Shown here piece after piece: positions 1 to 8,100 of a stretch of DNA of 64,000 bases. Origin of the DNA: Luscinia megarhynchos (lineage: Eukaryota > Chordata > Aves > Passeriformes > Turdidae); assembly GCA_034336665.1 (NCBI GenBank), contig CM067585.1, forward strand, positions 362,501-426,500. Direction: 5' to 3'. Under the pieces are notes generated by a model. It worked only from the letters and a program-made list of their open reading frames with translations. It ran no database searches and was not told where the DNA came from. Both the position numbers and the translations under genes were made by a program. Within the stretch, counting starts at the first letter, position 1. The number at the start of each line of letters is the position of its first letter.

Positions 1-243
1 AGCATCCTGCCCACTCCCGAAAAGAGAACCCAATGTGCCACCCCAACAAAGGCCCAGGCCCCGCATCTCCGCACCGGGGGAGCCCGAGCTCCCTGCCCTC
101 TCCTCCCCACCCAAAGGGGCTGACCCAGCCGTCCTGCCCCCAGCACTGCCCACAGCGCCCCGGCCGCCTCTCCTCCCCCGGCCCCAAGGGCCGCAGGCGC
201 CCGGGCCCTCTCCTCGCGGCGGCGGGCCGGAGCCCGCGCTCAC

Positions 244-350
244 CCGTTCTTGAGATCCACCTCGAGGATCTTGCCGTAGCCCTTGAAGAAGCGCTCCACG
301 TCGCGCTCCCGGGCCTGGTAGCTGAGGCGGCCGATGTAGACCCGCGGCAT
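244..350 (-). CDS. SRSF4: SRSF4 first coding exon (partial gene)
   Basis: The exon encodes the first 35 residues plus two bases of codon 36 of an SR-family splicing factor. It opens MPRVYIGRLSYQARERDVER and continues FFKGYGKILEVDLKN. This is the start of an RRM: VYIGRL at residues 4-9 is the RNP2 strand. From what I know of the family, the QARERDVERFF stretch fits SRSF4 better than SRSF6 (NVREKDIQRFF) or SRSF5. The start codon is the CAT at 348-350 read in reverse, with a donor GTGAGC immediately after 244. The rest of the gene (remaining RRM, second RRM, RS domain) lies beyond the left edge. The protein binds exonic enhancers and promotes splice-site recognition in nuclear speckles. Its neighbours, MECR and PTPRU, support the assignment by synteny. 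Confidence 0.95.
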
Positions 351-2577: not shown

Positions 2578-3090
2578 ATGGAGCTGTCTTCACAGGAGAC
2601 ATCCTGTGCTTCTGACCTGGAGGATCCAGCTTGGTGGGTGGCTTCAGCTTCTCCTCACCATCCCGGAGATGATATGCGACCATCGTGGGATGCTGCCGCT
2701 GGACTCCCTGCAGGCAAAAACGTCCTTGAAAGTTGGCCTGATGAATCCTGGGACCCCAACATGAAATTTAGCTCCTTGAAGATCTCTGCTAGCACCAAAC
2801 CTTTGGCTGACTCCTTCCTTGAGAAGCTCTGGCAGATCCTGAGCAGCCAGAGTTTCGAATCGATCTGGTGGGGCAATGATGGGAATTGCATTATCATCGG
2901 AGAAAAGCTCTTCAGGAAGGAAGTGCTGGGTAGGAGAGGGCCCCAGAAGATCTTTGAAATGGAGTCCATGAGAGGCTTCCTTCTGCAGCTCATGTTCCAT
3001 GGATTCCGCAGAATGGAAGGGGATTCTCCCCTGCTGACCTCCATGGAGGAGCTCCGAGCAGTGGCAGCAGCTGGGTCTGCACTAGGAAAG
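2578..3090 (+). CDS. HSF-like gene, exon 1 (DNA-binding domain)
   Basis: The ATG at 2578 begins an acidic, tryptophan-rich N-terminal arm (residues 1-78), followed by the HSF fold. The exon ends with GCACTAGGAAAG and a strong donor GTACGTCAG at 3091. It is 513 bases long, exactly 171 codons, with no stop. An upstream ATG exists in another frame, but the downstream domain fixes this frame. Confidence 0.75.
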
Positions 3091-4559
3091 GTACGTCAGC
3101 TCCTCCCGACTCAGAGATTCCTTGGGACATCCAGAGGGAGGCTCACGTTTGGCTAAAATGTGCCTAGGCAAGGCTGGAGACTGGACAGGAGCAAACAGCT
3201 TTGTTTTGTCGTGGGGTTAGTTACTCTGGACACGCTGAGGGGCCTGAAAACCAGCAGGCTTTGGGTTCCTTCAGCAGTTTTCCGGCTTTTGAAAACCCTA
3301 CACTTCTCTGCTCCCAATGCTCAAACATGAGGGTGGTTGTAACTTAACAAAGCTCTGTCCCCACACTTTTCTTAGCTGAAGACTGAGATGTGAAATGCCA
3401 GAGTCCTTTAAACCCCCATTTCTCCTTTCTCGCACCAATGCCTGGCTCCCTCGGATTTCTTCCTCCTCCTCGCAGCAAACAATCTTCCTTTTGCCTTTTC
3501 CAGCTGCTGTTCTACTCCAACCCCTTTTTCAGGAGGGATGACCCGCCCTGTGTCCAGAGGGGTGTGCAGGGTGCTGGGCAAAGCACAAACCCCCTGGCTG
3601 TGCCCCCTCCGGGCACTGAGATCCTGGCAAAGCTCCCAAGGAGAAGGTGGGATGCTCAGCCGGCATCGAGAGCAGAGGAGGAGGATGAGGACACGCAGAC
3701 ATCTACGAGCAGCAGCTGCACAGTGCCCAGGCCCCGGGCGGACATGAGGCCTGAGGCGGGCACCAGGCCTGAGGCGGGCACCAGGCCTGAGGCGGGCACC
3801 AGGCCCCGGGCAGACACCAGGCCCGAGTGGACACCAGGCCCCGAGGCGGGCACCAGGCCCCGAGTGGACACCAGCCCCCGGGCGGACACCAGGCCCCGGG
3901 TGGGCAAAGGGCCTCGACTGGACACCAGGCCCCGGGCGGACACCAGGCCCCGAGGCGGACACCAGGCCCCGGGCGGGCACCAGGCCCCGGGCAGGCCATG
4001 CCAGGCCCCCGCCATGCAAGCGGCCCTGCAGACACAGCCCTGCCGGCAGACACAGCCCAGCCAGCACCCAGCAGGCAGCTCCTGCTCCGGCCGCGCCGCC
4101 TCTGCCCCACAGCCCCCCTCCTGCCCCGCGCGGGCCCCTCACGCTCGAGGCACTGCCCGCGCCCTGCTCAGGGGCCGCACTGGCCCTGCCCTGCCCTCCG
4201 TGGTTTGCGGTGCCAACGCTGGGGCCAGGGCCGGTGGCCGGCCACGCTGGGGCCCACGGCCACTGCCCCACCTGCAGCTGCACGGCCAACGCTGCCGGAC
4301 CTCAGCCAGAGCTGGACTGGCAAGAGGGACCATAGGGAGCTTGTGGGGTCGTAGAGGCAGAAGTGCAGCACAGGAGGAAGCAAGAACACATTGTTGGTGG
4401 TTCTCAGTAATAAATCTTTTCACGTTGCTCTGCGGTGTCCGGTCACCGTCCCACACCTGGGCAGGAGGGCCTTCAGGGACACTGAGGGCCTGGCTCCAGT
4501 GCTTGATGGCCAAAGGCTCTGGCCCTTGCAGTACCCTTGGCAAAACCCAGCCGGGGTGA
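2578..4559 (+). CDS. HSF-family (HSFX/HSFY-like) transcription factor, two exons
   Basis: Coding exons are 2578-3090 and 3504-about 4559, joined by a GT-AG intron in phase 0. Exon 1 gives 171 residues. Residues 79-146 form a winged-helix HSF DNA-binding domain: FLEKLWQIL, then SFESIWWGNDG, LFRKEVLGRR and FLLQLMFHGFRRM. Exon 2 opens LLFYSNPFFRRDDPP, matching the conserved FYYNPNFKR-type segment that follows the domain in human HSFY. The recognition helix is degenerate: the usual SFVRQLN(L/M)YGF reads GFLLQLMFHGF, so the conserved arginine is a leucine. The C-terminal half is an arginine/proline-rich 18-bp coding repeat. Its single-base indels make the reading frame and stop uncertain. HSFs bind heat-shock elements in the nucleus, but HSFY/X-type members are germline-biased and poorly understood. 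HSF5 is a less likely alternative. Confidence 0.7.
3504..4559 (+). CDS. HSF-like gene, exon 2 (C-terminal part, end uncertain)
   Basis: The acceptor TTGCCTTTTCCAG ends at 3503 and the exon continues in frame with LLFYSNPFFRRDDPPC. After residue 250 or so it becomes the repeat-coded RPEAGT/RPRADT region. The frame stays open to 4559, which is beyond an AATAAA at 4409-4414. A stop at 4352-4354 in another frame sits neatly before that signal. The true end may therefore be earlier if a repeat indel is an assembly error. Confidence 0.55.
   Translation: MLFYSNPFFRRDDPPCVQRGVQGAGQSTNPLAVPPPGTEILAKLPRRRWDAQPASRAEEEDEDTQTSTSSSCTVPRPRADMRPEAGTRPEAGTRPEAGTRPRADTRPEWTPGPEAGTRPRVDTSPRADTRPRVGKGPRLDTRPRADTRPRGGHQAPGGHQAPGRPCQAPAMQAALQTQPCRQTQPSQHPAGSSCSGRAASAPQPPSCPARAPHARGTARALLRGRTGPALPSVVCGANAGARAGGRPRWGPRPLPHLQLHGQRCRTSARAGLARGTIGSLWGRRGRSAAQEEARTHCWWFSVINLFTLLCGVRSPSHTWAGGPSGTLRAWLQCLMAKGSGPCSTLGKTQPG
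3730..3996 (+). repeat. 18-bp minisatellite inside HSF-like exon 2
   Basis: About 15 units of an 18-bp motif resembling GAGGCGGGCACCAGGCCT encode six-residue repeats (E-A-G-T-R-P and variants). Some units are 17 or 19 bases, so the frame slips between R-P-R-A-D-T and other readings. Confidence 0.85.
4409..4414 (+). terminator. Candidate poly(A) signal of the HSF-like gene
   Basis: A canonical AATAAA followed by TCTTTTCACG. It lies 55 bases after an in-register TAG in an alternative frame and inside the longest open frame. It is the only such signal close downstream of the gene. Confidence 0.5.
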
Positions 4560-5187: not shown

Positions 5188-8100
5188 CTGCGCGGCAGGG
5201 AGGAGGGACAGGAGGGAGCTCTCACCGTGCCAGGCAGGGCCATCCCCTCCTGGAACCCTGCCTCAGGCCAGACAGCCTCCCTGGGTGTGACCCGGCACGA
5301 GGGAACAGCCCCCAGCATGGTCCTTGCCTGAGCCCAGCGCCAGTGTCTCAGCACCCTGCTGATACCTTACGTTTTAGCCTTCATATTTTTCAGATTCTGC
5401 ACTGCATTAGTATATAACTCTGAACTGATACCTTAAGTTTTAGCCTTCATATTTTCCAGATTCTGCACTGCATTAGTATATAACTCTGAACTGATACCTT
5501 AAGTTTTAGCCTTCATATTTTCCAGATTCTGTACTGCATTAGTATATAACTCTGAACTTCATATGAAGTGTCACCCAGTTCACAGTTTAGTTAGACAAAA
5601 CAATCCTTTTCCAGCCTGAGAACCAAGGACACCGCTGCAGCTTATAATAATAATATAAACAATATAAATAATATATAAAATAATATAAACAACAGGGAAT
5701 TGAGGAGAGCAATCTGGGAGGATGGGACTGCATAACCAGGAGTCGTAATTGAACAATGAATGCCATTATGTAAATGGACCAAAACCTATAAAATTGTGAA
5801 AATGTGTGACCCATCCTCAATCTTGGGTGTAGCCTCAGCTGGGCTCCTATACTGCCCAAGGTGAATCCTTTGAAGGCTTTTTAATAAATACCTATCTATT
5901 CCTTTAACACTGCCTAGCCTCTGCTCCAGGTAGCCTCTCAAAGCATCACTGGGACAAGCAGAGATGGCTCCATGAGGGGGAGTGCAGATGGTACTGGGTG
6001 GGGTTTGGCTGTGCTCCCACACCTGGCAGGGACACAGCTCCTTGGCCCTCCAGCTCAGTTCCCTCCAGCTCAGTTCCCTCAGCCCCCCCAGCTCAGTTCT
6101 CTCAGTTTCCTCCCAGCTCAGTTCCCTCAGTTTCCCAGCTCAGTTCCCTCAGCCCCCCCAGCTCAGTTCCCTCAGTTTCCCCCAGCTCAGTTCCTTCAGT
6201 TTCCCCCCCAGCTCAGTTCTCTCAGTTTCCTCCCAGCTCAGTTCCTTCAGTTTCCCCCAGCTCAGTTCTCTCAGTTTCCTCCCAGCTCAGTTCCCTCAGC
6301 CCCCCAGCCCAGGTCCCTCAGTTTCCTCAGTCCCCCAGCTCAGTTCCCTCATCTACCCCCAGTCCAGGTCCCTCATCTACCCCCAGTCCAGGTCCCTCGG
6401 TTTCCTCAGTTTCCTCAGCCCCCCTCAGCCCAGGTGCCTCAGTTCCCTCAGTTCCCCAGCCCCCAGCCCAGGTCCCTCAGCTCCCCCAGCTCAGTTCCCT
6501 CAGCCCCCAGCTCAGGTCCCTCAGCCCCCAGCCCAGGTGCCTCAGTTCCCTCAGCCTCCAGCCCAGGTCCCTCAGATCCCCCAGTTCCCCCAGCCCAGGT
6601 CCCTCAGCTCCCCCAGCTCAGTTTCCTCATTCCCCCCAGCTCAGTTTCCTCAGCCCCCCCAGCCCAGGTGCCTCAGTTCCCTCAGCCCCCCAGCTCAGTT
6701 CCCCCAGCCCCCCAGCCCAGGTGCCTCAGCCCCCAGCCCAGGTGCCTCAGTTCCCTCAGCCCCCCAGCCCAGGTGCCTCAGCCCCCAGGCCAGGTCCCTC
6801 AGTTTCCTCAGTTCCCCCAGCCCCCAGCCCAGGTCCCCCAGCCCCGGCCCACCCTGTGCGTGCTCCTTCCGCCACTGCGTCATCCAGAACCCGCGCAGCC
6901 GCACGTCCCGGAAGATGAAGGCGCTCTGAGGAGAGGGAATGTGTCACAGCTGTGTGTCCTCCCGGCGCCCAGGGACATTCCTGTGTCCCCTTGTGCAAAT
7001 GGACACGCCGTGGAGCACAGGGGACTGAGGAGGGGCAGCCCAGTACTCACCACAGGCACCGTCACAGGCTGCTTTGCCATCCCCCCGTAGGTGACCATGG
7101 TCCCCTTGGGCCTGCAGTAGGAAAGGGCTGTTGGCTTAGGTGGTCCTGAAAGTGCAGCTCTGAGTTGCCACCTCCTCCTCTCCCATCCCCAAACCCCCTG
7201 GGGCTGTCCTTGCACCCAGGGCTCACCAGTTACCCCTCAGATCCACTCTCCTCTTGCTTCCATGCACCACTAGCTGATTTTGCAGCTCAGCACACCAGTT
7301 GCACCTTGTCAGGACCTGGGGGACCTTCACAACTGGACCCCAGCTGCCCCCAGCCACCAGCACTGTGAGACTTTAAATCACTGTTGTTATCCAAAAACAC
7401 TTTTCCATTCATCTTCCCTCTCCAAAAGTTCAACAGACTCCGGAGCAGGACCCTCTATTGCCAGTTTCTGTCCCCAAGCTTGTGCCCAACCCAGCCCAAC
7501 TTACTGCAGATGCCGCAGCATCTCCGTGGTGCTTTTGCCTCCAACACAGTTCAGGGCAAGCCGGGGCCTTGGGATGCTCTGCAAGAGTTTACAACAAAGG
7601 TTCCCAAACTTGATGGCTCCTTCAGGGGACGGGAGCACAGTTCTTGACAAAGCATCTCCATTAACCTCAACATTTCCCTGAGGGCTGCTGAGAGTTATGG
7701 AGCTAAAATCTGTAAGAATCAGGAGCATTTCAATCCCCTGCAGGAAGACACCTTCAGCTAGACCAGGCTGCTTCAAGCCCAGTCTAATTGGAACCAAAGT
7801 CTGTGATGCTTCCCTTGTGGCAGCAGCAAAATCCCTCCTCTCCTGGGGCTAAATCCTGATCCGGAAAGGAATTTGTCCTTCCCACCATCCCTGCATTTCT
7901 CCCCAGTACTGAACAGCAGTGACAGCCCTGGACCATCTCTAATGGGATCAGCATTGAGGTACCTTAAATATATCTTTCATCTCTGGCTTTCTCAGCATCT
8001 CCTCCGTGACGACGTGGTCAGCACCCAGGGCCATCAGCCTCTCCACCAGCTTCGGGAGATCAGGTCTGGGGTGGGAAAAAGGAGATTAAAAAAGAGGACC

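What the first reader, a model, noticed from the sequence alone, without database searches (positions are those of the whole stretch)
2578..4559. Extra HSF-family gene between SRSF4 and MECR with a degenerate recognition helix
Seen: a two-exon gene with an HSF winged-helix domain whose recognition helix reads GFLLQLMFHGF instead of the family's (S)FVRQLN(L/M)YGF. The arginine and asparagine that normally face DNA are lost, while the fold core and splice structure are kept. Family knowledge: HSFY/HSFX genes are sex-linked and germline-biased in mammals, and I know of no such gene at this autosomal position in human. Inference: either an avian-lineage HSF with altered or no heat-shock-element binding, or a gene in decay.
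Basis: partly seen in the sequence, partly recalled or inferred. Interest (0 to 1): 0.75.

Follow-up and report, generated by a model that had tools for sequence, protein, structure and literature searches.

The report
Bird HSFY gene with altered helix
A songbird carries a copy of an ancient heat-shock-factor gene (HSFY) whose DNA-reading helix, nearly unchanged from sharks to emus, has lost its DNA-contacting amino acids in this bird and its relatives; the fold still seems to be kept by selection, so the protein probably does a different job from normal heat shock factors.

Summary
The gene is real: exon 1 2578-3090, intron 3091-3503, exon 2 from 3504, Pfam HSF domain E 1.4e-13, between an RRM (SRSF4) exon and MECR exons. 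It is not an isolated oddity: it belongs to the HSFY family, listed here from sharks to mammals, in a Neoaves branch. The helix keeps both Arg and Asn in 112 of 117 readable non-bird rows and in emu and rhea, but in 0 of 86 other readable rows, birds or unnamed bird-like contigs. Passerines fix FLLQLMFHGF. In 11 passerine rows the exon 1 domain differs 3.2-fold less than translated intron (0.079 against 0.252), so it is not simply decaying. A model of a close relative keeps the HSF fold. Correction: the end 4559 is wrong. The conserved C-terminus lies in another frame and stops at 4335, after a net +1 shift in an 18-bp minisatellite: a broken tail or an assembly error. Best reading: an HSFY duplicate that no longer reads heat-shock elements but keeps its folded domain for another contact. 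No transcript or dN/dS evidence could be obtained.

The parts
240..350 (-).
   Evidence: Pfam RRM_1 E 2.7e-6; the gene name itself comes from no call
2578..3090 (+). Exon 1, 171 codons: N-terminal linker and most of the HSF domain
   Evidence: relatives
2815..3090 (+). HSF-type domain, exon 1 part (residues 80-171)
   Evidence: Pfam match residues 80-187 of the spliced protein
2965..3015 (+). Recognition helix SMRGFLLQLMFHGFRRM; Leu136 (2983-2985) for Arg, Met139 (2992-2994) for Asn, His141 (2998-3000) for Tyr
   Evidence: contact roles from passages of PMC8379338
3091..3503 (+). Intron, GT-AG, 413 bp
   Evidence: its first part appears, translated, at the end of several database proteins
3504..3551 (+). 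End of the HSF domain in exon 2 (residues 172-187)
3727..3995 (+). 18-bp GC-rich minisatellite in exon 2 (79% GC); off-length units of 17, 19 and 19 bp give a net +1 shift
   Evidence: not seen in relative P0051
3996..4335 (+). Conserved C-terminal coding stretch in the +1 frame relative to the start of exon 2; stop 4333-4335
   Evidence: tblastn with P0051, P0001, P0002, P0015; stops
4409..4414 (+). Poly-A signal AATAAA
5024..8636 (-). Exons of MECR (with introns between), tail to tail with the HSFY-like gene
   Evidence: solved mitochondrial enoyl reductases, E 4.9e-16 and 2e-48, queries joined by eye from the window

Best explanation
The locus is a Neoaves duplicate of the ancient vertebrate HSFY gene. 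Shown by sequence: it keeps an HSF winged-helix domain, but the Arg and Asn that read the heat-shock element are Leu and Met, and the C-terminal contact Arg is Gln. Inferred: it no longer binds heat-shock elements; the winged helix is kept as a folded scaffold whose old DNA-facing surface, now hydrophobic (Leu, Met, Phe), contacts another partner. By analogy with mammalian HSFY it is most likely expressed in the germline. In this individual or assembly the C-terminal tail is out of frame because of a minisatellite.
Against: No binding, expression or localisation data. In a 17-row passerine set the helix is no more conserved than the rest of the domain (14 of 289 minor cells against 77 of 1292) and holds no excess of fixed changes (2/17 against 7/76, p 0.67), so there is no positive sign of a new helix function. 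Exon 2 is out of frame here. Unnamed short contigs carry frame-broken relatives (P0101, P0106, P0107, P0108), and P0013 lacks three helix residues. Database proteins are biased to open frames and to conserved parts. The model's mean pLDDT is only 56.7.
Confidence: 0.55

Rival explanations
1. A gene in slow decay. Duplication in early neognaths released it from constraint; the contact residues drifted, and copies are lost lineage by lineage, this one by a frame-breaking minisatellite.
For: Stem branch of 0.20 for neognaths against end branches of 0 to 0.04 in the eight reptile rows; out-of-frame tail; frame-broken unnamed relatives; helix no more conserved than the rest.
Against: The domain differs about three times less than translated intron in 11 passerine rows; Leu and Met are kept in 20 of 21 readable passerine rows.
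Confidence: 0.25
2. A DNA-binding factor with a changed site. The helix still enters the major groove but reads a different sequence.
For: Fold and helix kept in the model; basic residues remain at the helix end (FRRM).
Against: The three sequence-specific contact residues are gone and the DNA-facing positions are hydrophobic. Net charge of the domain cut is +1 in the window, 0 in P0001 and -2 in P0002, but HSF2 is also 0 in the same cut, so charge does not decide.
Confidence: 0.15
3. The exon 2 frame break is an assembly error and the gene is intact in this bird (compatible with the best explanation).
For: 79% GC array whose units differ in C-run length; P0001, P0002 and P0051 are database proteins that run through to the conserved C-terminus.
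Against: No call speaks against it; no reads could be examined.
Confidence: 0.5

Closest known systems
[quoted passage not shown]
   Same: Same HSF domain and same tree; C-terminal HCP.C.C motif shared with turtle HSFY, in the window in the +1 frame.
   Different: Helix Arg, Asn and Tyr lost; C-terminal KRR stretch lost; here it lies beside SRSF4 and MECR. Intron positions of HSFY in other animals were not examined.
Avian database entries named HSFX1, HSFY1, HSFX3 or HSFX/HSFY-like (for example P0001, P0002, P0003)
   Same: Direct relatives; the 14 best hits, all passerine, are 71-90% identical; nearly the same helix.
   Different: Many are exon 1 only: 13 of the 51 proteins hold the exon join by motif. 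I saw no paper that describes them (listings).
HSF1, HSF2, HSF4, HSF5 DNA-binding domains
   Same: Fold and Pfam family.
   Different: Their contact residues are missing; Pfam showed no second domain in the window's product. That HSFs have a multimerisation domain (HR-A/B) is from passages of PMC12366260.

Membership tests
HSF superfamily | HSF-type winged-helix domain | tested here: met
   Pfam PF00447 E 1.4e-13; fold of relative P0001
HSF superfamily | RQLN recognition helix | tested here: not met
   FLLQLMFHGF
HSFY clade | Groups with HSFY in a tree | tested here: met
   apart from HSF2 and HSF5 97/97; neognath clade 100/97 among HSFY rows rooted on sharks and a ray; 107 columns only, no mammalian HSFX in the trees
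HSFY clade | Conserved C-terminal tail with HCP.C.C | tested here: inconclusive
   present, but in another frame from the start of exon 2
HSFX against HSFY | Nearer to HSFX or to HSFY | not tested
   no mammalian protein named HSFX stands in the listed hits (one search lists 120 of 258)
HSFY | Germline expression | not testable with these tools
   no expression data held
HSFY | Sex linkage (mammals) | not testable with these tools
   chromosome of the window unknown; the search of its own genome did not complete

The most novel reading that the evidence does not exclude
Neognath birds turned an HSFY winged helix, whose recognition helix is nearly invariant from sharks to emus, into a module that does not read heat-shock DNA; its former DNA face became a hydrophobic protein-binding surface, fixed in passerines.
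Probability: 0.3. Interest if true: 0.75.

Novelty: new variant of a known kind. Interest (0 to 1): 0.55.

Why it matters
[quoted passage not shown] an older paper says the gene appears identifiable in birds (PMC4460688, passages). The hits here put HSFY-like genes in sharks, coelacanth, amphibians, reptiles and ratites. The neognath break is a natural experiment: one conserved helix lost in one clade while the fold stays. It would test what an HSF domain can do without reading its DNA site, and whether mammalian sex linkage of HSFY followed an older autosomal role.

Tried and rejected
Burst of change in the helix: a count of fixed against variable sites gave nothing. Stronger conservation of the helix than of the rest: seen in 11 rows (1 of 14 sites variable), not in 17 rows that include suboscines and Smithornis, so dropped. 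A tree rooted on HSF2 and HSF5 put neognaths outside reptile plus mammal HSFY; holding all 66 bird rows together was not rejected (p-AU 0.449), and a tree rooted on sharks and a ray gave one neognath clade, so I read the first rooting as long-branch pull. Contig lengths (several Neoaves relatives at 8.7-8.9 Mb; three of the second Neoaves clade at 23.9-25.1 Mb, like rhea at 25.1 and emu at 28.0 Mb; but others at 42, 110 or 133 Mb) hint that the window's copy moved to a small chromosome; hint only. dN/dS, synteny in other birds and transcripts could not be tested: no DNA or reads of other birds were reached. The query held some intron letters; only residues 73-119 matched. The listing was swamped (52,699 papers) and says little.

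Full report
What is there. The window holds a two-exon gene on the plus strand. Exon 1 is 2578-3090, the intron 3091-3503 with GT and AG ends, and exon 2 starts at 3504 in frame. The spliced product has one Pfam match up to E 1, HSF_DNA-bind, residues 80-187, E 1.4e-13, 51.7 bits. Left lies an RRM exon on the minus strand, right lie MECR exons on the minus strand.

What is wrong in it. The stop at 4557-4559 lies beyond the poly-A signal at 4409. Relatives P0051, P0001, P0002 and P0015 match exon 2 in one frame up to the tandem array and in the +1 frame after it, to a stop at 4333-4335. The array has an 18-bp unit (3727-3992) with units of 17, 19 and 19 bp among the rest, net +1. P0051, a passerine-like relative without the array, reads through. 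Either this copy has a broken tail or the GC-rich array is misassembled; reads would decide.

Relatives. A protein search gave 51 hits with E up to 1; 47 carry a species name, all birds, annotated HSFX1, HSFY1, HSFX3, HSFX- or HSFY-like, or uncharacterized; four are unnamed. A profile search (100 hits) added Galloanserae, rhea, turtles, tuatara, squamates, a second Neoaves clade and two mammal HSFY. A third search (258 hits, best 120 listed) added emu, gavial, amphibians, coelacanth, sturgeon, paddlefish, sharks, rays, elephant shark and many mammals. None of the 117 named rows of that list is a neognath bird; the list runs down to 419 bits, while emu and rhea score 822 and 818. So no neognath protein with a canonical HSFY was seen, within the length filter of that search; the 138 unlisted hits were not seen.

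The helix. One alignment of 213 fetched proteins and the window. Of 118 non-bird rows (three of them unnamed), 117 have a readable helix: Arg at the R71 position in 114, Asn at N74 in 115, both in 112, Tyr in 117; the five exceptions are mammals. Emu, rhea, gavial and axolotl read CMKSFIRQLNLYGFSKM; elephant shark and coelacanth differ only in the last letter. Of 23 passerine rows (the window, named species, and P0017 and P0076, assigned by sequence) 21 are readable: Leu 20 and Val 1 for Arg; Met 20 and Ile 1 for Asn; His 21 for Tyr. The other 71 rows (neognath non-passerines and unassigned fragments, a few of them passerine-like) gave 66 readable by the script; one, P0051, holds exon 2 only and is dropped, leaving 65. 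Arg stands in 7, Asn in 34, both in none. The seven with Arg are Penelope, Asarcornis, Alectura, three Callipepla and the unnamed P0091, all with His for Asn. The third specific contact, Arg117 of HSF1, is Gln in the window and Glu in P0001 and P0002; exon-1-only rows cannot be read there.

Why it matters for DNA. In HSF1 and HSF2 crystal structures the Arg makes the paired bonds to the G of GAA, the Asn a water-mediated bond, the C-terminal Arg an auxiliary one (passages of PMC8379338). Arg-to-Ala abolishes binding in two maize HSFs (passages of PMC12251660). Loss of all three makes normal HSE binding unlikely. This is inference; nothing was assayed. That the new Leu, Met and Phe face the old DNA side follows from the position of the residues they replace; no surface was computed.

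Selection. Several database proteins run on into the intron, which gives a noncoding comparator. Twelve rows were set up; P0010 was dropped because the splitting pattern did not match it, leaving 11. Mean pairwise difference: exon 1 domain 0.079, N-terminal part 0.160, translated intron 0.252. Variable sites 25 of 93 against 22 of 26, Fisher p 1.4e-7. The rows share ancestry, so the p value is only a guide. Caveats: the intron stretch is 26 codons and was kept by annotation only where open. Against a special role of the helix: in 17 rows it is no more conserved than the rest and holds no excess of fixed changes.

History. In a tree of 62 rows and 107 columns, rooted on elephant shark, a shark and a ray, the 36 neognath rows form one clade (100/97, stem 0.20), the second Neoaves clade is separate (100/100), and the window lies in passerines (100/99). 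Penguins hold both types, though in different species (P0019 Spheniscus, P0085 Eudyptes). The duplication and speed-up therefore precede passerines; Asn to Met is a passerine step. Few columns, so many forks are open.

Decay. Four fragments from unnamed short contigs look frame-broken (P0101, P0106, P0107, P0108), and P0013 lacks three helix residues. They may be real losses or assembly errors; loss in some lineages is likely.

Print. The review PMC12366260 (passages) limits high-confidence HSFX/HSFY orthologues to mammals; PMC4460688 (passages) says the gene appears identifiable in birds. In the listings I saw no title or abstract start on this bird gene or on the helix loss. Most subscription papers are not held, and no full text beyond the passages named was read.

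Noticed in passing
window 3727-3995: 18-bp GC-rich minisatellite inside coding exon 2, not seen in relative P0051, with off-length units.
   Followed up: yes
window 5359-5558: Three tandem copies of a 66-bp unit, 97% matches, in the MECR region.
   Followed up: no
window 6046-6845: Long CCCAG/CTCAG-rich tandem arrays between MECR exons.
   Followed up: no
window 5640-5910: AT-rich stretch followed by a segment with AATAAA that looks, by eye only, like the end of a repeat element.
   Followed up: no
proteins P0081, P0084, P0085, P0089, P0090, P0094: A second Neoaves HSFY-like clade with another altered helix (for example SFTHRLHLYGF), 100/100.
   Followed up: partly
proteins P0026 and P0048: Two different proteins of Strix uralensis whose longest contigs have the same length (8,834,000), a possible local duplicate.
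   Followed up: no
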